DNA from: Solibacillus sp. FSL R5-0449
Lineage (GTDB): Bacteria; Bacillota; Bacilli; Bacillales_A; Planococcaceae
Direction: 5' to 3'
Assembly (NCBI RefSeq): GCF_037975215.1
Contig: NZ_CP150239.1
Coordinates: forward strand, 3,014,001 to 3,078,000
Length of the DNA stretch: 64,000 nucleotides
The notes under the pieces were generated by a model. It saw only the letters and a list, made by a program, of their open reading frames with translations, was not told where the DNA came from and searched no databases. This document shows, piece after piece, positions 33,405-58,085 of the stretch; position 1 is the first letter of the stretch, and each line of letters starts with the position of its first letter. The position numbers were made by a program, and so were the translations under genes.

Positions 33405-33423
33405 TTGAACAGTCGGATTCTAT

Positions 33424-33515
33424 CCACATCCCTACGCAAGTGCTAACTTACAGGTTCAAAGAGTCAGTGCAATCCCGTGCACAATCTCAGCCGACTTTCT
33501 CGGCACCCCTTGTGG
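33424..33515 (-). ncRNA. TPP riboswitch (THI element)
   Basis: Minus-strand transcript shows the conserved aptamer parts in order: GGGGTGCC (33510-33503), GGCTGAGA, CTTTGAACCTGTAAGTTAGC, then GCGTAGGGA, closed by P1 TGTGG/CCACA at 33511-33515 and 33424-33428. It precedes a terminator and thiT, so high TPP should switch thiamine uptake off. Confidence 0.95.
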
Positions 33516-33546
33516 TACATCTAATTTTTATTGTTTGAACATGCTC

Positions 33547-50882: not shown

Positions 50883-50917
50883 CAAAAAAGAGTTGCCAGA
50901 ATACTTCATGACAACTC
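50883..50917 (-). terminator. Terminator of the murQ operon
   Basis: Arms GAGTTGCCA/TGACAACTC (one wobble) with T6 on the minus strand, seven bases after the murQ stop. Confidence 0.85.
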
Positions 50918-50923
50918 CCGGTA

Positions 50924-51829
50924 TTAACTATTGTTTAAAAGTAAAATTGCTTTCCTTGTATGGCCATTTACTTGTTCTAACGCAAGTTTTACTCGCTCAT
51001 AATTTTCGTTTGTTTTTAGCATGACAATTGCCGGCTTCACCGCGAATTTCGTTTTTTCAAGTACCGCTTCCGCTTCCTCATATTTGCAGTCCGTCGCATC
51101 GATGACAATTCTTTTTGCCCGCTCTATTAATTTTTTATTGCTTGCATGTACATCGACCATTAAATTTTCGTATGCTTTCCCTAATTGCACCATCGTTGAT
51201 GTACTAATCATATTTAAAATCATTTTATGTGATGTAGCTGCTTTTAACCGCGTTGATCCTGTTAATATTTCCGGCCCTACGACAACTTCGATCGCTTCAT
51301 CCGCATAACGGCTTACTTCAGAATTAATATTGCTCGTCAAACTTACCGTGTAGGCACCGACAGATTGGGCGTACTCTAAAGCACCCATTACAAAAGGCGT
51401 CGTCCCGCTTGCCGTTATACCGATAACAGAATCGAACCGCGTTATGTTTTTTTCCTTTAATTTGTTGAAGCCATCTTCCAAACGATCTTCCGCATTTTCA
51501 ACTGCCTGGAAAAATGCTTCCTTTCCTCCTGCCATAATCGTCTGCACCAGCTCCGGGTCAGTCATAAAAGTAGGAGGACATTCAGATGCATCAAGCATTC
51601 CTAAACGACCACTAGTACCCGCTCCGATATAAAAAAGGCGGCCACCGTTATAAATGTTTTCAACCACTCTTTTAATTACTTTTTCAATGGTAGGTAAAAC
51701 TTGTTCAACACTTTTCACAACGAGCATATCTTCTTTATTCATGATTTGAAGTATGTCCGAGACAGGCATTACATCCAAATCCATTGTCTTATCATTTCGT
51801 TTTTCAGTCGTTAATTGATCGTAATTCAT
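50924..51829 (-). CDS. murQ: N-acetylmuramic acid 6-phosphate etherase
   Basis: MurQ removes the lactyl ether from MurNAc-6P to give GlcNAc-6P and D-lactate. The 301-aa SIS-domain protein carries the family hallmark FYIGAGTSGRLGMLDASECPP with the catalytic Glu, the segment GSTRLKAATSHKMILNMIST and a C-terminal helical region. Its start overlaps the kinase stop by four bases (ATGA type), so they are coupled. Last gene of the murR-type operon. The product GlcNAc-6P would be handled by NagA/NagB encoded elsewhere. Confidence 0.96.
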   Translation of the reverse strand: MNYDQLTTEKRNDKTMDLDVMPVSDILQIMNKEDMLVVKSVEQVLPTIEKVIKRVVENIYNGGRLFYIGAGTSGRLGMLDASECPPTFMTDPELVQTIMAGGKEAFFQAVENAEDRLEDGFNKLKEKNITRFDSVIGITASGTTPFVMGALEYAQSVGAYTVSLTSNINSEVSRYADEAIEVVVGPEILTGSTRLKAATSHKMILNMISTSTMVQLGKAYENLMVDVHASNKKLIERAKRIVIDATDCKYEEAEAVLEKTKFAVKPAIVMLKTNENYERVKLALEQVNGHTRKAILLLNNS

Positions 51830-52803
51830 GTTATCTCACCTTCCAATAGACGCCATGTTTGTTGAATCGTTTGTTTAACTTGATCACTTACTTCAATATT
51901 ATTTTCGTGTAAAGCTAATAAGTATGCTCCAACTGTCCCCGAAATTGTTGGCTTTAAAGCGACCAAATCAGGAAACCGTGATGAAAAACGGACGGTAAAC
52001 TTTTCATAAAATGAATCATTCGAAAATAATCCCCCGTGTAATACAACCGGTTTCGTCCGATCGATTCGCGAATACGCACTCTCAATAAGTTCCATTAATG
52101 CTTCTTGAACTTTATCGACAATGGATTTTGCTAATTGATCTTCTTCAATAGCTTCCAGCACGATTCTGCTCACAGAAGAAATAGCTGTGACGGGATTTGG
52201 GCTGCCATAAATTACTGTAATGAGCTGGTCTGGTGACAGCACATTAAAATGGGTCAATATGTTTTCCTGAAAAGGTTTCAAAGGGACTTTGCCATCTTGT
52301 GCATCCAATACGGAACGAATGGCAAGCTTACCTAAATGATAGCCGCTTCCTTCATCACCCAGTAAATAGCCCCAGCCACCAACACGAAATGTTTTTTGCT
52401 GCTCATAACCGAATATAATTGCTCCGGTTCCGGCAATAAGTAAAGTACCTTCCCTGCCCCACGATCCCGCTGCCAATGCGGCATGGATATCACTCTGGAT
52501 TTTAAGTTTCTCAAGAACTGGTGAATGCTTAAATGCATCATATATTTTCTGTTGTTCAGCTTGTCGATCTGCACCTGCCATTGCAGCAAACACCATTTCC
52601 ACATCGGTTAATGCTGCCCCTGTCTTTATTAACAACTGGTCGATTAATTCATTTATAAGTGTGTACAGCTGCTCTGTTGAAATCGCTGTTAAATTGCCTG
52701 AACTTCCTTTGGCAACTGCAAGCAAATGGCCACTTTCATCACCGATTACGGCGGTTGTTTTCGTGCCGCCACCGTCTATACCAATCCATAGTTTCCCTGA
52801 CAT
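51826..52803 (-). CDS. murK: BadF/BcrA-type ATPase, probable MurNAc/GlcNAc kinase
   Basis: This 325-aa ASKHA-fold kinase shows the phosphate motif (IGIDGGGTKTTAVIG), a LLIAGTGAIIFGY motif and the adenosine-side sequence PVVLHGGLFSNDSFYEKF. Its kin include GlcNAc kinases and MurK of Clostridium acetobutylicum, which phosphorylates both MurNAc and GlcNAc. It lies directly between the amidase-like gene and murQ; an ATP-dependent kinase is needed because the ABC importer leaves the sugar unphosphorylated. The symbol is by analogy; GlcNAc alone cannot be excluded. Confidence 0.85.
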   Translation of the reverse strand: MSGKLWIGIDGGGTKTTAVIGDESGHLLAVAKGSSGNLTAISTEQLYTLINELIDQLLIKTGAALTDVEMVFAAMAGADRQAEQQKIYDAFKHSPVLEKLKIQSDIHAALAAGSWGREGTLLIAGTGAIIFGYEQQKTFRVGGWGYLLGDEGSGYHLGKLAIRSVLDAQDGKVPLKPFQENILTHFNVLSPDQLITVIYGSPNPVTAISSVSRIVLEAIEEDQLAKSIVDKVQEALMELIESAYSRIDRTKPVVLHGGLFSNDSFYEKFTVRFSSRFPDLVALKPTISGTVGAYLLALHENNIEVSDQVKQTIQQTWRLLEGEIT

Positions 52804-52816
52804 ATACTCACCTTAT

Positions 52817-53848
52817 CTATTCATTTTCAAGTGCAATTAAGTTATGCACAATTCGCCGAAACCGTTGAATTTCACAACTGCGTCCAAAATGAACGCGATT
52901 TGTTAACAATATAATTGCTAATTGCTTCTCATCCGATATCCAAATTGAAGTGCCTGTGAAACCGGTATGTCCAAAACCATCCCTTAAGTATTGACCGGAA
53001 AATGAAGGTGCTGAATATAATTGCCACCCTAATCCACGCTGTTCCTCATGCTGCCTAGTAAAACTTTGTTTCGCTAATTGTTTAGTCTGCTCGTAAAAAA
53101 TAGAATCGGTATCTTTCATAAAAGCTTGAGCAAACTTCGCCAAGTCTTCAGCAGTCGAAAACAATCCGGCGTGTCCGCTTACTCCGCCAAAATGCAGTGC
53201 ATTTTCATCATGCACTTCACCCCACTGATGTTTGTTTAAATAAGTACGATATTCAGTTGCAGCGATTTTTCCCTGTAACTGGGCAGACGGATTAAATCCG
53301 GTATTGTGCATATGTAGCGGCTGAAAAATATTTTTACCGGCATAGTCCGCTAATGACATTCCTGTAACCTTTTCGATGAGCATTCCTAGTAAAATATAGT
53401 TCACATCACTATAGATCACCTGCTGCTCAACATTTTTCCGTTCTGTTTCCTGAGCTATTCGTTCAATGACATCCGCGTATGCGACTTCTTCTTTATAAAA
53501 CTTGATTTCAGCCTGAAAGCCGCTCGTATGTGTTAATAAGTGACGAACCCTGACTTCTTCATGCATGAGCTTAAGTTCCGGAAAGTAGTAGCCAATCGAA
53601 TCATCCAAATCAATCAAACCCTGCTCAAGCAACAATAAAACTGCGCTTGCCGTTGCCGTCACCTTCGTTAATGAAGCACAATCAAACATCGTCTGTTCCG
53701 TCATTGGAATTTCTGGTTCCGTATGGGCCACACCGAATGCTTTGCAGTAAAGAATATCTTTTGCATTTGCTACAGCCAGTACTGCACCAGGCAGTTCTTT
53801 GTTTTGGATCGCTGTTTCAATAAACTCTTCTACTCGTGAAAAAGACAT
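52817..53848 (-). CDS. Beta-lactamase-fold serine hydrolase, AmiE-like, without signal peptide
   Basis: The class C beta-lactamase/PBP-type domain has SxxK (FDCASLTKVTATAS), a YxN-equivalent (VIYSDVNYILLGML) and the third motif HTG (GFGHTGFTGTSIW). B. subtilis AmiE (YbbE), a MurNAc-L-Ala amidase in its muropeptide operon, belongs to this family. Here the protein is 343 aa and begins directly with the domain (MSFSRVEEFIETAIQ), so it looks cytosolic, unlike the exported relatives. Placement between permease and kinase fits removal of the peptide from MurNAc after import. Amidase activity is inference; esterase activity is possible. Confidence 0.82.
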   Translation of the reverse strand: MSFSRVEEFIETAIQNKELPGAVLAVANAKDILYCKAFGVAHTEPEIPMTEQTMFDCASLTKVTATASAVLLLLEQGLIDLDDSIGYYFPELKLMHEEVRVRHLLTHTSGFQAEIKFYKEEVAYADVIERIAQETERKNVEQQVIYSDVNYILLGMLIEKVTGMSLADYAGKNIFQPLHMHNTGFNPSAQLQGKIAATEYRTYLNKHQWGEVHDENALHFGGVSGHAGLFSTAEDLAKFAQAFMKDTDSIFYEQTKQLAKQSFTRQHEEQRGLGWQLYSAPSFSGQYLRDGFGHTGFTGTSIWISDEKQLAIILLTNRVHFGRSCEIQRFRRIVHNLIALENE

Positions 53849-53858
53849 AATTCCCCTC

Positions 53859-54683
53859 CTATTTGATTGCCCCTTCTGTCATACCTTTTACGATATGGCG
53901 TTGGAAAATCGAATAGAAAATGATGACTGGAATAACAGCGATACATAGCCCGGCAAATAGTACGCCCCATGCACTATCATACTGTGCGTCTATTTTCAGT
54001 AAATTCATCGCAACACCTAACGTATTTTTACTTTCTGTTTGCAGTAAGATTAACGCCATGAAAAATTCATTCCAATAAGAAATGGCATTCAAAATTGTAA
54101 CTGTTATAATTCCCGACTTGATGAGTGGTGTCACAATTTTAAATAGAATTCCATATGGACTCATACCATCGACGACCGCTGCTTCTTCCAGCTCTTTAGG
54201 AATATTTCCAATGAACCCGACGAGAATGAAAATCGTAAACGGTACATGTGAAATCGCATAAACAAGTGATAACGCCCACAAGTTATCCAGTAAATTAAAC
54301 TTCATTAATAAGAAAAATAGCGGGATCCAACCTAAAACGGATGGAATCATCATTGACGCCAAATAAACATTGATCAGCACTTCACCAAATTTTGAACGCA
54401 CACGCTCCAATGCGTAAGCTGTTGGAATCGATAATAAAAGTGTTAAAAAAGAACCAAGTACTGTAACAAAGAAACTGTTTAAAAATGCTCGCCCGATATT
54501 GTAGTCATTCCATGCGCGTTCAAAATTTGTAAAACTAAAATCAGTCGGCATTGACCATGGTGACGTGAAAATTTCTGCATTCGATTTAAACGCACCCATA
54601 AACATCCATATTAATGGGAAGATTACGATAAACGCCCATAGGATTAACGGGATACGTACTAATATTTGTGAAACTACTTTCAT
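53859..54683 (-). CDS. Carbohydrate ABC transporter permease (MalG type)
   Basis: This 274-aa membrane protein has six helices and the EAA motif of sugar permeases (KELEEAAVVDGMSPYGILFKIVTPLIK). It pairs with the MalF-type permease upstream (13-base gap). In this operon it probably imports MurNAc, GlcNAc-containing sugars or muropeptides. No ATPase gene is nearby; a shared MsmX-type ATPase is the likely partner, as for several B. subtilis sugar importers. Confidence 0.93.
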   Translation of the reverse strand: MKVVSQILVRIPLILWAFIVIFPLIWMFMGAFKSNAEIFTSPWSMPTDFSFTNFERAWNDYNIGRAFLNSFFVTVLGSFLTLLLSIPTAYALERVRSKFGEVLINVYLASMMIPSVLGWIPLFFLLMKFNLLDNLWALSLVYAISHVPFTIFILVGFIGNIPKELEEAAVVDGMSPYGILFKIVTPLIKSGIITVTILNAISYWNEFFMALILLQTESKNTLGVAMNLLKIDAQYDSAWGVLFAGLCIAVIPVIIFYSIFQRHIVKGMTEGAIK

Positions 54684-54696
54684 CTAAATCCCCCCG

Positions 54697-55590
54697 TTAA
54701 TATTCGACTTTTTCTTTTTTCAAAATAAACTGTGACACAAGAACAGTAATGAGCGATACGACCAGGATGAGAACACCAATTGCTGCACCATAGCCAAATT
54801 GGAAGTCTTCAAATGCGCGCTGGTATAAATAAGACCCCATTACTTCTGAAGCACTACCCGGTCCACCACCTGTCATTACTTGCACAAGTACAAACGAACC
54901 GTTAAGAGACGTAATAATAATATAAAGAATCGATGTTTTAATTTGCGGCCAAACTAGCGGAACCGTAATATGCCAAAATTGCTGCCATTCGGATGCGCCA
55001 TCAATATCTGCAGCTTCATACAAACTTTTCGGTACATTCGAAATACCACCCATAATAAGAAGCATAAATAATCCAATCCCTGCCCAAATTGCCGGAATCG
55101 CTATACTAGGCAGCACCCATGTTTTATCCCCTAACCAAGGGCGGGCCCATTCTGTCAATCCGACCTGATTTAATAGGCTGTTTACAATCCCCATGTTCGG
55201 ATCATAAATAAACTGCCATAAAATCCCGATCACTACTACGGACATAATATTCGGAAAGAAAAATACAATCCGGTAAAATGGCGCTTCTTTAATTTTCAAC
55301 TGCGTTAATGCCACTGCAAAAAATAGAGCTAGTGTCATAATTCCAATGACTTTTACAAATACGAAGAAAAAGTCATTTACGATCGCCTTCACAATAATGG
55401 AGTCATTCCATAGACGAATATAATTATCTAAGCCGACAAATGTTTTATTGGCACTTGTTCCGGACCAATCAAAAAATGAGTAATACAAACCGCCTAACAT
55501 AGGATATACAGTAAAAATTAAAAAGAGCAGAAACGTCGGCAGTAAACAAAATGCTAAAAACAAATATTTGCTTTTTGATGAAAATGTCAT
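54697..55590 (-). CDS. Carbohydrate ABC transporter permease (MalF type)
   Basis: A 297-aa six-helix permease with the EAA loop (VPKSLYEAADIDGASEWQQFWHITVP split here for length) and GGGPGSASEVMGSYLYQRAF. It follows the binding-protein gene after an 80-bp gap that contains a perfect hairpin and forms the heterodimeric pore with the MalG-type protein. Confidence 0.93.
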   Translation of the reverse strand: MTFSSKSKYLFLAFCLLPTFLLFLIFTVYPMLGGLYYSFFDWSGTSANKTFVGLDNYIRLWNDSIIVKAIVNDFFFVFVKVIGIMTLALFFAVALTQLKIKEAPFYRIVFFFPNIMSVVVIGILWQFIYDPNMGIVNSLLNQVGLTEWARPWLGDKTWVLPSIAIPAIWAGIGLFMLLIMGGISNVPKSLYEAADIDGASEWQQFWHITVPLVWPQIKTSILYIIITSLNGSFVLVQVMTGGGPGSASEVMGSYLYQRAFEDFQFGYGAAIGVLILVVSLITVLVSQFILKKEKVEY

Positions 55591-55622
55591 TGTCGATACT
55601 CCTTTCTCTATTGATTAAATAA

Positions 55623-55647
55623 GGTTGCTAAAAAGCTTTTAGCAACC
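55623..55647 (-). terminator. Intra-operon hairpin between binding protein and permease genes
   Basis: Perfect 11-pair stem GGTTGCTAAAA/TTTTAGCAACC with a three-base loop and weak T-tract on the minus strand. Its position suggests partial termination or mRNA protection that raises the binding protein above the permeases. Confidence 0.65.
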
Positions 55648-55669
55648 CCATTTTCTTCCCCTAATTTTC

Positions 55670-57070
55670 TTAGTTTAGTTCCTCTGCTTTTTTCACCATC
55701 TTATCGACGAATTCTTCAGCAGTTATATCACCAAGTAAGATATCAATTATTAATAATTTAATTTCATTTGTAATTTCAACTGCAATTTTTTGCTGTTCAG
55801 CATCTGGTGTATAACGTTTATACGTATGAACAGCACCTGGATTATTGATCATTTCATTAATATTTTTCAAGAAATCCTGAACATTTGTATTTGAAGATAA
55901 ATCAACGTCTTTCATGTTCATAATCGCACCTGTTGATTCAGCAAATGCCTGTGCATATTCTTCCGTAAAGATGAATTCTAAAAATGCTTTCGCAGCTTCC
56001 GGATTTTTCGCTTTTTCGGCAATTGCAATTGTACGAATATCCGGTACAAGCGCTAATGGCTGACCTGGATCATTCATCGGTGTTGGTGTAAAACCAAACT
56101 CAAAACTGTCCGGTGTATCATTTTTCATTTCGTTCGGTAACCAGAAACCTACTGGAATGTAAGCATTTTTATGCATTAAGAAGTTCATTTGTGATTGCGT
56201 ATGATTGTAAGCTGCAAAACCGCTATCGATTACGCCTGCTTTTGCAATTTTCTCTACCTTCTTCAACACTTCAAGCGTTTCAGGTTTTTTCCAAGCTTCA
56301 ATAACACCGTTGTTTAAATCATTTAATAACTCTTCACCGCCTGCTGCAGCAAATGCAGGATTCAATACGCCACGGTGGAAGTATTGTGTATGTTGACCAG
56401 TCGTTACAAATGGCGCAATTTTTGTATCGGCTTTAATTTTTTCCATAGAACTGATCCAGCTGTCAAAGTCAGTTGGTACTTCCCATCCGTTTTCTTCGAA
56501 CCACTTCGTGTCATACCAAGTTCCCCAAGTATCGAATACTAATGGTAAACTATAGATTTTCCCGCCATCTACTTCTTCTGCTGGCGAAATAAAGCTATCT
56601 AATAATGGTGTACCATTTTCAAGTGTAATTCCTTTTGCAAATTCACTAATATCCATTAACTGACCTTCAGCGATCATTTGTGTTTCACTAGCTCCAGCAC
56701 CATCGATGTATACGACATCAGGTGGTGTTTCGGAAATCCAGCGTGTGTTCATCTCTGTATTAATATTTGGACCTGCATGTTCTATAATTTCCAAATCCGG
56801 GTTCTGTTTTTGGAAGTCTCCTATAACCTGCTTCCACCATCCATCACCATATCCTCCAACAAAATATTGAATTTCCAGTGTACCTGACAAACCATCCCCT
56901 GTATTTTCTCCAGAAGTATTATCCGATGGCGCTGTTGATTGTTCAGTAGTGCTGTTTCCTTCATTGTCACTGTTTGATTCCTCGTCATTCGAACACGCAA
57001 CGAGCAATAACATTAAACTCATTAATGCTACTAAAAACCAAGTCTGCTTTCTGTTTTTGATAACAAACAT
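55670..57070 (-). CDS. Extracellular sugar-binding lipoprotein (family 1) of the muropeptide operon
   Basis: A lipoprotein signal ends in the lipobox LLVACSNDE (Cys about residue 26), followed by a Ser/Asn-rich linker. The mature protein is a family-1 solute-binding protein (LEIQYFVGGYGDGWWKQVIGDF, WISETPPDVVYIDGAG, VFDTWGTWYDTKWFEENGW, DIRTIAIAEKAKNPEAAKAFLEF). It should capture the substrate for the MalF/MalG-type permeases. The operon indicates an amino-sugar or muropeptide ligand. ATG follows GGGGTG. It lies 57 bases downstream of the murR-like regulator. Confidence 0.9.
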   Translation of the reverse strand: MFVIKNRKQTWFLVALMSLMLLLVACSNDEESNSDNEGNSTTEQSTAPSDNTSGENTGDGLSGTLEIQYFVGGYGDGWWKQVIGDFQKQNPDLEIIEHAGPNINTEMNTRWISETPPDVVYIDGAGASETQMIAEGQLMDISEFAKGITLENGTPLLDSFISPAEEVDGGKIYSLPLVFDTWGTWYDTKWFEENGWEVPTDFDSWISSMEKIKADTKIAPFVTTGQHTQYFHRGVLNPAFAAAGGEELLNDLNNGVIEAWKKPETLEVLKKVEKIAKAGVIDSGFAAYNHTQSQMNFLMHKNAYIPVGFWLPNEMKNDTPDSFEFGFTPTPMNDPGQPLALVPDIRTIAIAEKAKNPEAAKAFLEFIFTEEYAQAFAESTGAIMNMKDVDLSSNTNVQDFLKNINEMINNPGAVHTYKRYTPDAEQQKIAVEITNEIKLLIIDILLGDITAEEFVDKMVKKAEELN

Positions 57071-57127
57071 ACATTACACCCCTTCATTTTCATTATGTTA
57101 ACTATATGAATATAGTCAGCACCGATA

Positions 57128-57973
57128 TTAACGAGAGAAACCTTTAATTACCTCGAGTGTGCGATTCAGCGCAATAATCGAGTTATCATAGTTTAGTGTT
57201 GCTATTCCTGTATATAAAATATCAATTAATGTCAGTTGGGCGATGCGTGATGCGGTTGCCGAACTACGAATATCCGCTTCATTAGAGACAACGTAAAGAG
57301 CATAGTCTGCCAAGCTCTTTATTGTATTTCGCTTATTTTGTGTCATTGTAATAATCGTTGCTTGATTTTCTTTTGCAACTGTAAGGGCGTTTATAATTTC
57401 CTTCGTTTCACCCGAGTACGAGATTGCGAATACAACATCCTCACTCGTCGCGTGAGTTGCGGCAATAAGCTGACCATGACTATCAAAAATCGTTTCGCAG
57501 TTTTTATTGATCCGCTTCAATTTGTGCTCGAAATCCTGTGCAACGATTGCTGAAGCGCCGATACCAATAAAGATGATCTTTCTTGCATCGTTAATTTTGT
57601 GGATGATCTTTTCAAATTCTCTTTCGCCATTAATCATGAGCGTTTTTTTGATTGCATCGATATTGTGCATTTGAATCGTCTGTATCATTTGGAGTATCGT
57701 TGAATCTTTTTCTAATTCAAAGTTGTGGTTGTGTGGAATTTCCAGAGTAGGCGCTGAAGCAATACTTAGTTTTAAATCTTTGAAACCGGAAAAGTTTAAT
57801 GCCCGGCACATCCTCACAATGGTTGCTTCGCTTGTTTTAGCTTTTTCAGCCAGCACAGCAATCGGCATGCGAATGACATCGTCTAAATGATTTAAAATAT
57901 ATAAAGCCACGTTCCTTTCAGCAGGTTTCAGCAACTCCATCCCCGATCGTATTCTTTCAATACTATTTTCCAA
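57128..57973 (-). CDS. murR: MurR/RpiR family transcriptional regulator
   Basis: The N-terminal RpiR-type helix-turn-helix (residues 1-80; PIAVLAEKAKTSEATIVRMCRAL) precedes a SIS sugar-phosphate-binding domain (IIFIGIGASAIVAQDFEHKL, FAISYSGETKEIINAL). MurR in Escherichia coli represses murQP and is relieved by MurNAc-6P. Here it heads the whole ABC-kinase-etherase operon and is likely its regulator. TTG start with a weak TAGG site suggests modest expression. 281 aa is the usual length. Confidence 0.88.
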   Translation of the reverse strand: MENSIERIRSGMELLKPAERNVALYILNHLDDVIRMPIAVLAEKAKTSEATIVRMCRALNFSGFKDLKLSIASAPTLEIPHNHNFELEKDSTILQMIQTIQMHNIDAIKKTLMINGEREFEKIIHKINDARKIIFIGIGASAIVAQDFEHKLKRINKNCETIFDSHGQLIAATHATSEDVVFAISYSGETKEIINALTVAKENQATIITMTQNKRNTIKSLADYALYVVSNEADIRSSATASRIAQLTLIDILYTGIATLNYDNSIIALNRTLEVIKGFSR

Positions 57974-58085
57974 GTTTATAACCTACTCTCAGATAAAATG
58001 TTGTAAAACTTCCTTTTTAATGTAAAATATATGAAATTTAACTTCATAATAAAACCTATTTTGCTAGTCGTCAAGATTTTATTTA

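What the first reader, a model, noticed from the sequence alone, without database searches (positions are those of the whole stretch)
50924..57973. ABC-transporter-based MurNAc/muropeptide recycling operon
murR, a sugar binding lipoprotein, two permeases, a beta-lactamase-fold hydrolase, a BadF-type kinase and murQ lie in one direction, with small gaps and one four-base overlap. B. subtilis uses the PTS protein MurP, which phosphorylates MurNAc on entry; here an ABC importer would deliver free sugar, so the kinase step is logically required, as with MurK in Clostridium acetobutylicum (established knowledge). The full combination, including an intracellular hydrolase, is an alternative route whose substrate is likely larger than plain MurNAc (inference).
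Basis: partly seen in the sequence, partly recalled or inferred. Interest (0 to 1): 0.75.

Follow-up and report, generated by a model that had tools for sequence, protein, structure and literature searches.

The report
ABC importer operon for muramic acid
A bacterium carries a seven-gene set that seems to pull cell-wall fragments in through an ATP-driven importer and take them apart inside the cell, rather than cutting them outside and importing the bare sugar by a phosphotransferase system as Bacillus subtilis does.

Summary
Seven same-strand genes (murR, CUT1 binding lipoprotein, two permeases, PF00144 hydrolase, BadF-type kinase, murQ; 50924-57973, minus) lie between a conserved promoter-like site and a terminator-like hairpin. 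MurQ is clear (TIGR00274, 387 against cut-off 302); the kinase's best solved relative is a MurNAc/GlcNAc kinase. The genome gave no match to PTS_EIIC (PF02378), GH3/NagZ, NamZ, AnmK or GH20, so ABC importer plus kinase is the only MurNAc route found. NagA, NagB and an MsmX-like ATPase lie elsewhere; some relatives carry them directly downstream. The hydrolase resembles the secreted B. subtilis-type amidase AmiE but lacks a signal peptide. In the 17 loci found by the permease it is present in 17 (kinase 16, murQ 14). Across the family, hydrolases beside ABC importers are nearly all signal-less and those beside secreted NagZ/NamZ nearly all secreted; this is mainly one tree split, with exceptions. 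Paired palindromes ahead of ABC-, Dpp- and PTS-type clusters suggest shared MurR control. Best reading: import of MurNAc-peptide (or MurNAc), cytoplasmic amide cleavage, phosphorylation, etherase. Substrate and activities are untested. Known parts, apparently a new combination; key subscription papers were not held.

The parts
58046..58074 (-). sigma-A-type promoter-like site TTGACG-17-TATTAT ahead of murR
   Evidence: (10 of 12 matches; such sites are at chance frequency in the region), but same place, with single-base changes in two sequences, in all 7 aligned
58032..58046 (.). candidate MurR operator, palindrome TGAAATTTAACTTCA adjoining the -10 box; a weak partner (6 mismatches) lies 33 bases away
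   Evidence: the pattern was written from this site, so its perfect match there is by construction
57128..57973 (-). murR: RpiR-type regulator (HTH_6 + SIS)
   Evidence: (NCBIfam equivalogs below cut-off, so the name rests on context)
55670..57070 (-). CUT1-type sugar-binding lipoprotein, NgcE-related
   Evidence: (TIGR03851 206.6 bits, cut-off 399.65)
54697..55590 (-). ABC permease A (UgpA/MalF-like)
53859..54683 (-). ABC permease B (GlcU/MalG-like)
52817..53848 (-). PF00144 serine hydrolase, AmiE-like, no signal peptide; S59-x-x-K62, Y146-S-D, H294-T-G motifs
51826..52803 (-). BadF/BcrAD-type kinase, candidate MurNAc (and GlcNAc) kinase MurK
50924..51829 (-). murQ: N-acetylmuramic acid 6-phosphate etherase
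   Evidence: TIGR00274 387.2 bits, cut-off 302
50888..50919 (-). terminator-like hairpin after murQ (14 pairs, one bulge, then a U-run)
   Evidence: -14.2 kcal/mol, z -2.58; not listed by the consensus scan

Best explanation
A MurR-controlled operon for taking up and breaking down cell-wall muramic acid in a bacterium without a detectable PF02378-type sugar PTS. A lipoprotein and two permeases, energised by a shared MsmX-like ATPase encoded elsewhere, import MurNAc-L-Ala(-peptide), and possibly also free MurNAc. The AmiE-like hydrolase, kept in the cytoplasm, splits the amide bond to give MurNAc and peptide. The BadF-type kinase makes MurNAc-6-phosphate from ATP; MurQ splits it into GlcNAc-6-phosphate and D-lactate; NagA and NagB elsewhere in the genome feed it to fructose-6-phosphate. 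Shown by sequence: gene content, MurQ identity, no match to the PTS EIIC, NagZ, NamZ and AnmK families, lack of a signal peptide, conserved promoter-like site and palindrome. Inferred: substrate, amidase activity, kinase specificity, ATPase partner, MurNAc-6-phosphate as effector.
For: MurQ passes its equivalog cut-off. Kinase best PDB match: a MurNAc/GlcNAc kinase, 8zo3, E 7e-35. PTS_EIIC, GH3, NamZ, AnmK, GH20: 0 matches in the own genome. Single MurQ above cut-off, in the operon. NagA 309 bits against 225.65; NagB 271 against 236.9, frame of 247 residues open. An ATPase 64% identical to the one that follows nagB in a relative. 4 of 6 loci of a second genus continue with nagA-nagB-ATPase (46, 67; labels checked in 26, 50, 74). 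Of 16 genus genomes 13 have MurQ above cut-off, and the same 13 carry this hydrolase (11) or have a second one beside murQ in a Dpp-type operon. In the 17 permease-found loci the hydrolase is present in 17, kinase 16, murQ 14. The hydrolase is 38% identical over 344 residues to the signal-bearing one of a murR-murQ-murP-hyd-nagZ-namZ cluster (Planomicrobium L211; 42, 67, 75, 76), the gene content described for B. subtilis (PMC5061867 passages). Palindrome pairs 32-34 bases apart precede ABC-, Dpp- and PTS-type clusters.
Against: No biochemical data. The AmiE assignment rests on distant similarity; PF00144 also holds esterases, beta-lactamases and peptidases. The binding protein is nearest to GlcNAc-glycan binders and passes no specific model. 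In L192 (Neobacillus niacini) a CUT1 importer and murQ sit beside a secreted hydrolase-NagZ-NamZ set, so a CUT1 importer can go with outside digestion. G130 has a signal-less hydrolase with a PTS; G064 one with neither; G077 a secreted one near a Dpp importer. G114 and G120 lack murQ at this locus (they have one elsewhere, 24); G252 lacks kinase and murQ there. Of 42 signal-less hydrolase loci with an ABC importer, 31 have murQ and 33 a kinase within the fetched stretch, and 2 neither. The localisation pattern is mostly one tree split.
Confidence: 0.62

Rival explanations
1. The importer carries free MurNAc only. Muropeptides are trimmed outside by other enzymes; the cytoplasmic hydrolase does a side job, for example clearing occasional MurNAc-dipeptides or other amides.
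For: CUT1 importers usually carry sugars (established knowledge); the binding protein is related to NgcE-type binders; L192 couples a CUT1 importer with secreted AmiE/NagZ/NamZ-type enzymes; two GH73 glucosaminidase matches exist in the genome.
Against: The hydrolase is the most constant partner of this transporter, 17 of 17 permease-found loci, even where murQ is absent (G114, G120, G252); no GH3 or NamZ match exists in this genome to do the trimming outside.
Confidence: 0.25
2. The importer carries GlcNAc-MurNAc(-peptide) disaccharides that are cut inside.
For: In 7 of the 57 classified loci a signal-less hydrolase sits in a CUT1 cluster with NagZ and AnmK, in 4 of them also with NamZ, in apparently signal-less forms.
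Against: This genome has no GH3, GH20, NamZ or AnmK match, so none of the families searched would split the disaccharide inside; other glycosidase families were not searched.
Confidence: 0.06
3. The operon serves a different amino sugar or chitin-type glycan, with MurQ a passenger or of altered function.
For: Kinases of this family can prefer GlcNAc (C. acetobutylicum MurK acts on both, PMC5790795 passage); the binding protein is NgcE-related.
Against: MurQ is above its equivalog cut-off and keeps the glutamates E83 and E111 in the motifs that I recall as catalytic; murQ is in 14 of 17 permease-found loci, and downstream nag genes fit; similar palindrome pairs precede murQ-murP clusters.
Confidence: 0.07

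Closest known systems
B. subtilis murQ-murR-murP-amiE-nagZ-ybbC (ybbC = namZ, recalled) cluster
   Same: MurR-type regulator, MurQ, and a related PF00144 hydrolase; same product GlcNAc-6P (PMC5061867, passages read)
   Different: B. subtilis digests outside and imports MurNAc by PTS with phosphorylation; here ABC importer, separate kinase, hydrolase without signal peptide, and no NagZ, NamZ or PF02378-type PTS match in the genome
Tannerella forsythia murTKQ operon
   Same: non-PTS uptake plus a PF01869 kinase plus MurQ (PMC5790795, passages read)
   Different: sodium symporter-type MurT instead of an ABC importer; PDB chains that seem to be its kinases (8ow9, 8oqw, judged by name only) match the window kinase weakly, about 42 bits; the passages read mention no hydrolase in that operon
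Clostridium acetobutylicum MurK
   Same: kinase acting on MurNAc and GlcNAc (as reported in PMC5790795); 8zo3, named MurNAc/GlcNAc kinase, is the nearest solved structure (its organism was not seen)
   Different: its gene context could not be read (Reith 2011 not held), so how close its operon is remains open
Agrobacterium YejBEF-YepA muropeptide importer
   Same: ABC importer for muropeptides followed by cytoplasmic amidase and glycosidase (PMC9790009, abstract and passages read)
   Different: peptide-type (Yej) transporter in a Gram-negative; passages describe an AmpD/NagZ/AnmK/AmgK/MurU route to UDP-MurNAc; here a CUT1 sugar-type transporter and MurQ
E. coli murQ-murP-yfeW (PBP4B)
   Same: a hydrolase encoded with MurQ (PMC5061867 passage); the NCBIfam PBP4B model is the best NCBIfam hit of the window hydrolase and of the L211 one
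   Different: PTS importer; PBP4B model matched below its cut-off (170.5 against 385)

Membership tests
MurQ (MurNAc-6P etherase) | TIGR00274 equivalog score above 302 | tested here: met
   387.2 bits; sole such gene above cut-off in the genome
MurK-type MurNAc/GlcNAc kinase | PF01869 domain and nearest relationship to a characterised MurNAc/GlcNAc kinase | tested here: met
   PF01869 128 bits; best PDB chain 8zo3, named MurNAc/GlcNAc kinase, E 7e-35; relationship judged among solved structures only
MurK-type MurNAc/GlcNAc kinase | small residues where bulky ones would clash with the lactyl group (T. forsythia MurK S133-P134-L135 and T94, PMC10465942 passages) | tested here: inconclusive
   carried over through the human NagK alignment the window has G142-G143-W144 and S104: no Glu or His, but W144 is bulky; permissive, not diagnostic
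MurK-type MurNAc/GlcNAc kinase | phosphorylates MurNAc with ATP | not testable with these tools
   needs enzyme assay
AmiE (MurNAc-L-Ala amidase) family | sequence kinship to the hydrolase of murQ-murP-amiE-nagZ-namZ clusters, with intact SxxK, YSD, HTG motifs | tested here: met
   38% over 344 residues to L211, E 2e-69; motifs invariant in 15 aligned hydrolases of ABC clusters. B. subtilis AmiE itself was not compared
AmiE (MurNAc-L-Ala amidase) family | acts outside the cell (signal peptide) | tested here: not met
   no N-terminal extension or hydrophobic segment before the catalytic domain (own heuristic, no signal-peptide program); so AmiE-like, not AmiE
AmiE (MurNAc-L-Ala amidase) family | cleaves MurNAc-L-Ala | not testable with these tools
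   needs enzyme assay
CUT1 ABC importer | SBP_bac_1 plus two BPD_transp_1 permeases | tested here: met
   the name CUT1 is recalled
CUT1 ABC importer | MsmX/UgpC-type ATPase that serves it | tested here: inconclusive
   none in the operon; a candidate at G000:C1:3128846, pairing not testable
NgcE GlcNAc/chitobiose binding protein | TIGR03851 equivalog score above 399.65 | tested here: not met
   206.6 bits
MurP PTS route | PF02378 PTS EIIC domain in the genome (MurP-type proteins of L143 and L211 carry it) | tested here: not met
   0 matches in G000 (the same search rings in B. subtilis)

The most novel reading that the evidence does not exclude
Some Bacillota recycle cell wall by an inside-the-cell scheme: several distinct ABC importers (at least three CUT1 lineages and a Dpp-type one) bring in muropeptides of different size, and the matching digestion enzymes (AmiE-like hydrolase, in some genera with NagZ, AnmK and NamZ) are kept in the cytoplasm, under one MurR-type double operator. 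The window is the smallest version, taking MurNAc-peptides only.
Probability: 0.5. Interest if true: 0.68.

Novelty: new variant of a known kind. Interest (0 to 1): 0.52.

Why it matters
The Gram-positive MurNAc routes characterised in the papers I saw passages of (B. subtilis, S. aureus) import the sugar by the PTS MurP, in B. subtilis after digestion outside. A CUT1 importer paired with a cytoplasmic AmiE-like amidase and a MurNAc kinase would be an ATP-driven alternative in bacteria without that kind of PTS. It makes the size of the recycled fragment directly testable with one binding protein, one hydrolase and one kinase, and suggests that the same enzymes can be run inside or outside the cell according to the importer.

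Tried and rejected
Chance cluster or misannotation: rejected by conservation. Own MurP or GlcNAc PTS: no EIIC match. NagZ, NamZ, AnmK or GH20 acting on a disaccharide: none found. Near-identical plasmid DNA: none (near mode only).

Localisation test. The Fisher test of hydrolase form against ABC importer (57 loci, p 1.6e-9) is not used as proof: the tree puts nearly all secreted forms in one clade (3 label changes in all), so the loci are not independent, and my labels for distant rows (Gemmata, Melioribacter, Acetobacter) are crude and probably wrong. The 57 loci are all 54 non-own matches with E at or below 1.4e-35 plus three weaker Dpp-linked ones picked because they sit by murQ. 'Secreted' was my own rule (extension over 50 residues with a hydrophobic stretch). 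L225 and L141 have 39- and 29-residue hydrophobic extensions that I read as wrong upstream starts and counted as signal-less; if they are real, two more exceptions follow. L242 (G064) counts as signal-less but falls in the secreted clade.

One search annotated 80 named loci; many distant ones gave no hydrolase ORF under my simple caller, and only 25 of the 80 entered the tree, so no count is taken from the rest. Labels such as NagZ, AnmK, NamZ, NagA, NagB, MsmX, MurP and Opp/Dpp were first given by eye to one reference protein each and spread by blastp; representatives were checked afterwards and held (MurP best fits the MurNAc PTS model but below its cut-off). One slip: the reference named DppD is in fact the AnmK gene of L140; the ABC classification used DppB/DppC and is not touched.

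Promoter-like sites are at chance frequency. Matches at up to two mismatches to the palindrome pattern are also at chance frequency in the window (2 found, 2.36 expected). Upstream density (65 sites in 86,152 bases against 98 in 869,620) is confounded by AT-rich intergenic DNA and related species. The 32-34 base pairing (18 partners of at most 4 mismatches for 36 sites, against 2 over the other 42 offsets) is less so, although both members of some pairs and sister species are counted. Some loci showed no site (for example L048, L233). tblastn of a MurP reference against seven EIIC loci of genus relatives gave nothing. Structure prediction was not run: it would not separate the candidate substrates.

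Literature: ten searches in the open-licence library; in those aimed at MurNAc uptake, MurK or AmiE I saw in the listings no paper on a CUT1 muropeptide operon in Bacillota; Reith 2011 and Litzinger 2010 were not held.

Full report
What is there. The window holds seven ORFs in one direction at the stated coordinates. Pfam and NCBIfam give: RpiR-type regulator; SBP_bac_1 lipoprotein; two BPD_transp_1 permeases; PF00144 hydrolase; BcrAD_BadFG kinase; and MurQ, which alone passes an equivalog cut-off (TIGR00274, 387.2 against 302). Coordinates give gaps of 57, 79, 13, 10 and 13 bases and a four-base overlap. A site TTGACG-17-TATTAT lies ahead of murR and keeps its place, with single-base changes in two sequences, in the window and the six closest relatives that I aligned. 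A hairpin with a U-run follows murQ. The genes therefore look like one transcription unit. No ATPase gene is in it.

What the rest of the genome lacks and has. The 3.58 Mb single-contig genome has no match to GH3/NagZ, PTS_EIIC PF02378, NamZ, AnmK or GH20. The GH3, EIIC and NamZ searches ring in B. subtilis; the AnmK and GH20 searches ring in other control genomes. Other PTS and glycosidase families were not searched. MurQ occurs once above the cut-off, in this operon. NagA and NagB (frame of 247 residues open) are present elsewhere. An ATPase at G000:C1:3128846 is 64% identical to the one that follows nagB in G131. Two GH73 glucosaminidase matches are present.

Conservation. Permease A orthologues (E at most 1e-80) occur in 17 of 261 genomes of the order, in 2 of 19 genera. 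In these 17 loci the hydrolase is present in 17, the kinase in 16, murQ in 14 (window counted). The exceptions are G114 and G120 (murQ and murR missing here, murQ elsewhere) and G252 (kinase and murQ missing here). A third genus, Jeotgalibacillus, has binding protein, permeases, hydrolase, kinase and murQ in the same order, with a murR-like gene upstream; it was found by the hydrolase and is not counted (L156). In the second genus 4 of 6 loci continue with nagA-nagB-ATPase, one has only nagA and one only the ATPase. Within the genus, 13 of 16 genomes have MurQ above the cut-off. The same 13 have either this hydrolase (11) or a second hydrolase beside murQ (G048, G126 and G114 seen in loci; G120 by coordinates only) in a different operon: MurR, hydrolase, peptide-type importer, MurQ, AnmK. 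The other three genomes have no MurQ above cut-off and only weaker hydrolase matches, whose surroundings I did not fetch.

The hydrolase. The window protein is 38% identical over 344 residues to the L211 protein and keeps SxxK, YSD and HTG motifs. The L211-type proteins are about 550 residues with a hydrophobic N-terminus; the window protein starts at the catalytic domain. Of 57 family loci classified (selection and rule told under Tried and rejected), 42 have a signal-less hydrolase with an ABC importer (38 CUT1, 4 Dpp-type), 2 a signal-less one without ABC (one with a PTS, G130; one with neither, G064), 12 a long secreted one without ABC (all with NagZ, 10 with NamZ), and 1 a long one with a Dpp importer upstream. 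Of the 42, 31 have murQ and 33 a kinase in the stretch, 2 neither. Where NagZ and NamZ belong to an ABC cluster (7 and 4 loci), most start without a signal, though some NagZ frames run longer upstream; in the secreted clusters they have signal-like starts. The tree puts nearly all secreted forms in one clade, so this is mostly one evolutionary switch and not dozens of independent cases. L192 (Neobacillus niacini) is a counter-example: CUT1 importer and murQ next to the secreted set. What does add weight is that the permeases of two other CUT1 lineages (L048-type, L045-type) are only 31-36% identical to the window's, and a peptide-type importer is a third case; each accompanies a signal-less hydrolase.

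The kinase. Best solved relative is 8zo3, named MurNAc/GlcNAc kinase. T. forsythia MurK makes room for the lactyl group by small residues at S133-P134-L135 and T94 (PMC10465942, passages). Carried over through the NagK alignment, the window has G142-G143-W144 and S104: no Glu or His there, so MurNAc is not excluded. C. acetobutylicum MurK takes both sugars, with a slight preference for GlcNAc (PMC5790795, passage), so dual activity is possible.

The binding protein. It scores 206.6 bits with the NgcE model, below its cut-off, and its closest solved relative is a bifidobacterial binder of lacto-N-biose-type units, described as similar in structure to a chitooligosaccharide binder (PMC12345172, passages). 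This fits an N-acetyl sugar but does not tell MurNAc from MurNAc-peptide.

Regulation. A palindrome (TGAAATTTAACTTCA, 58032-58046) adjoins the -10 box. Alone it is weak evidence: the search pattern was written from it, and matches at up to two mismatches are at chance frequency in the window. The consensus TGAAATTWAATTTCA, however, recurs ahead of ABC-, Dpp- and PTS-type clusters. Taking the window plus the 57 loci, 36 upstream sites have at most 2 mismatches, and 18 partners with at most 4 mismatches lie 32-34 bases away against 2 at the other 42 offsets tested. The partner in the window is weak (6 mismatches), and some loci have no site. The shared arrangement suggests one regulator type and one effector, presumably MurNAc-6P, across the importer types.

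Mechanism proposed. Fragments freed outside, presumably with help from the GH73 glucosaminidases, are bound by the lipoprotein and imported as MurNAc-peptide; the hydrolase cuts the amide bond in the cytoplasm; the kinase phosphorylates MurNAc; MurQ yields GlcNAc-6P and D-lactate; NagA and NagB finish. Gene content, missing families and missing signal peptide are shown by sequence; substrate, activities, ATPase partner and effector are inferred. I put 0.62 on the reading as stated and 0.25 on free MurNAc only.

Known or new. Each part is known: AmiE-MurP-MurQ in B. subtilis, BadF-type MurK, MurTKQ in Tannerella, and ABC import of muropeptides by YejBEF-YepA in Agrobacterium (PMC9790009, abstract and passages). 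The combination of a CUT1 importer with a cytoplasmic AmiE-like hydrolase, MurK and MurQ was not seen in the listings of the searches aimed at it, but the library lacks the most relevant subscription papers. I call it a new variant of a known kind.

Noticed in passing
58032-58046 and upstream regions of L045-L047, L142, L224, L226, L227, L230, L234, L247, L251, L253: Recurring palindrome TGAAATTWAATTTCA, often with a partner 32-34 bases away, ahead of MurNAc clusters with CUT1, Dpp-type or PTS importers: a candidate shared MurR operator.
   Followed up: partly
L140, L141, L142 (G114, G048, G126); similar genes in L256 (G088): A second murQ operon type in the genus: MurR, distant signal-less PF00144 hydrolase, SBP_bac_5 peptide-type importer, MurQ, AnmK; looks like anhydro-muropeptide uptake.
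   Followed up: partly
L045-L047, L224-L227; named: L150, L151, L153: CUT1 clusters with BadF kinase, hydrolase, PIG-L, NagZ and AnmK, in several also a GNAT gene and NamZ, NagZ/NamZ mostly without signal peptides; the three named loci also have murQ.
   Followed up: partly
55623-55647: Perfect 11-pair hairpin in the 79-base gap between the binding protein and the first permease gene; such hairpins often keep binding-protein mRNA in excess (recalled), not tested.
   Followed up: no
L192 (Neobacillus niacini): CUT1 importer plus MurQ next to secreted AmiE/NagZ/NamZ-type enzymes, with no kinase found in the stretch: a likely free-MurNAc version.
   Followed up: no
G114:C1:3029474-3030031: Broken nagA-like remains with stops, some 5 kb from a PTS EIIC gene, in a genus relative.
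   Followed up: no
33412-33520: TPP riboswitch, minus strand, the only Rfam match above gathering score in the window.
   Followed up: no
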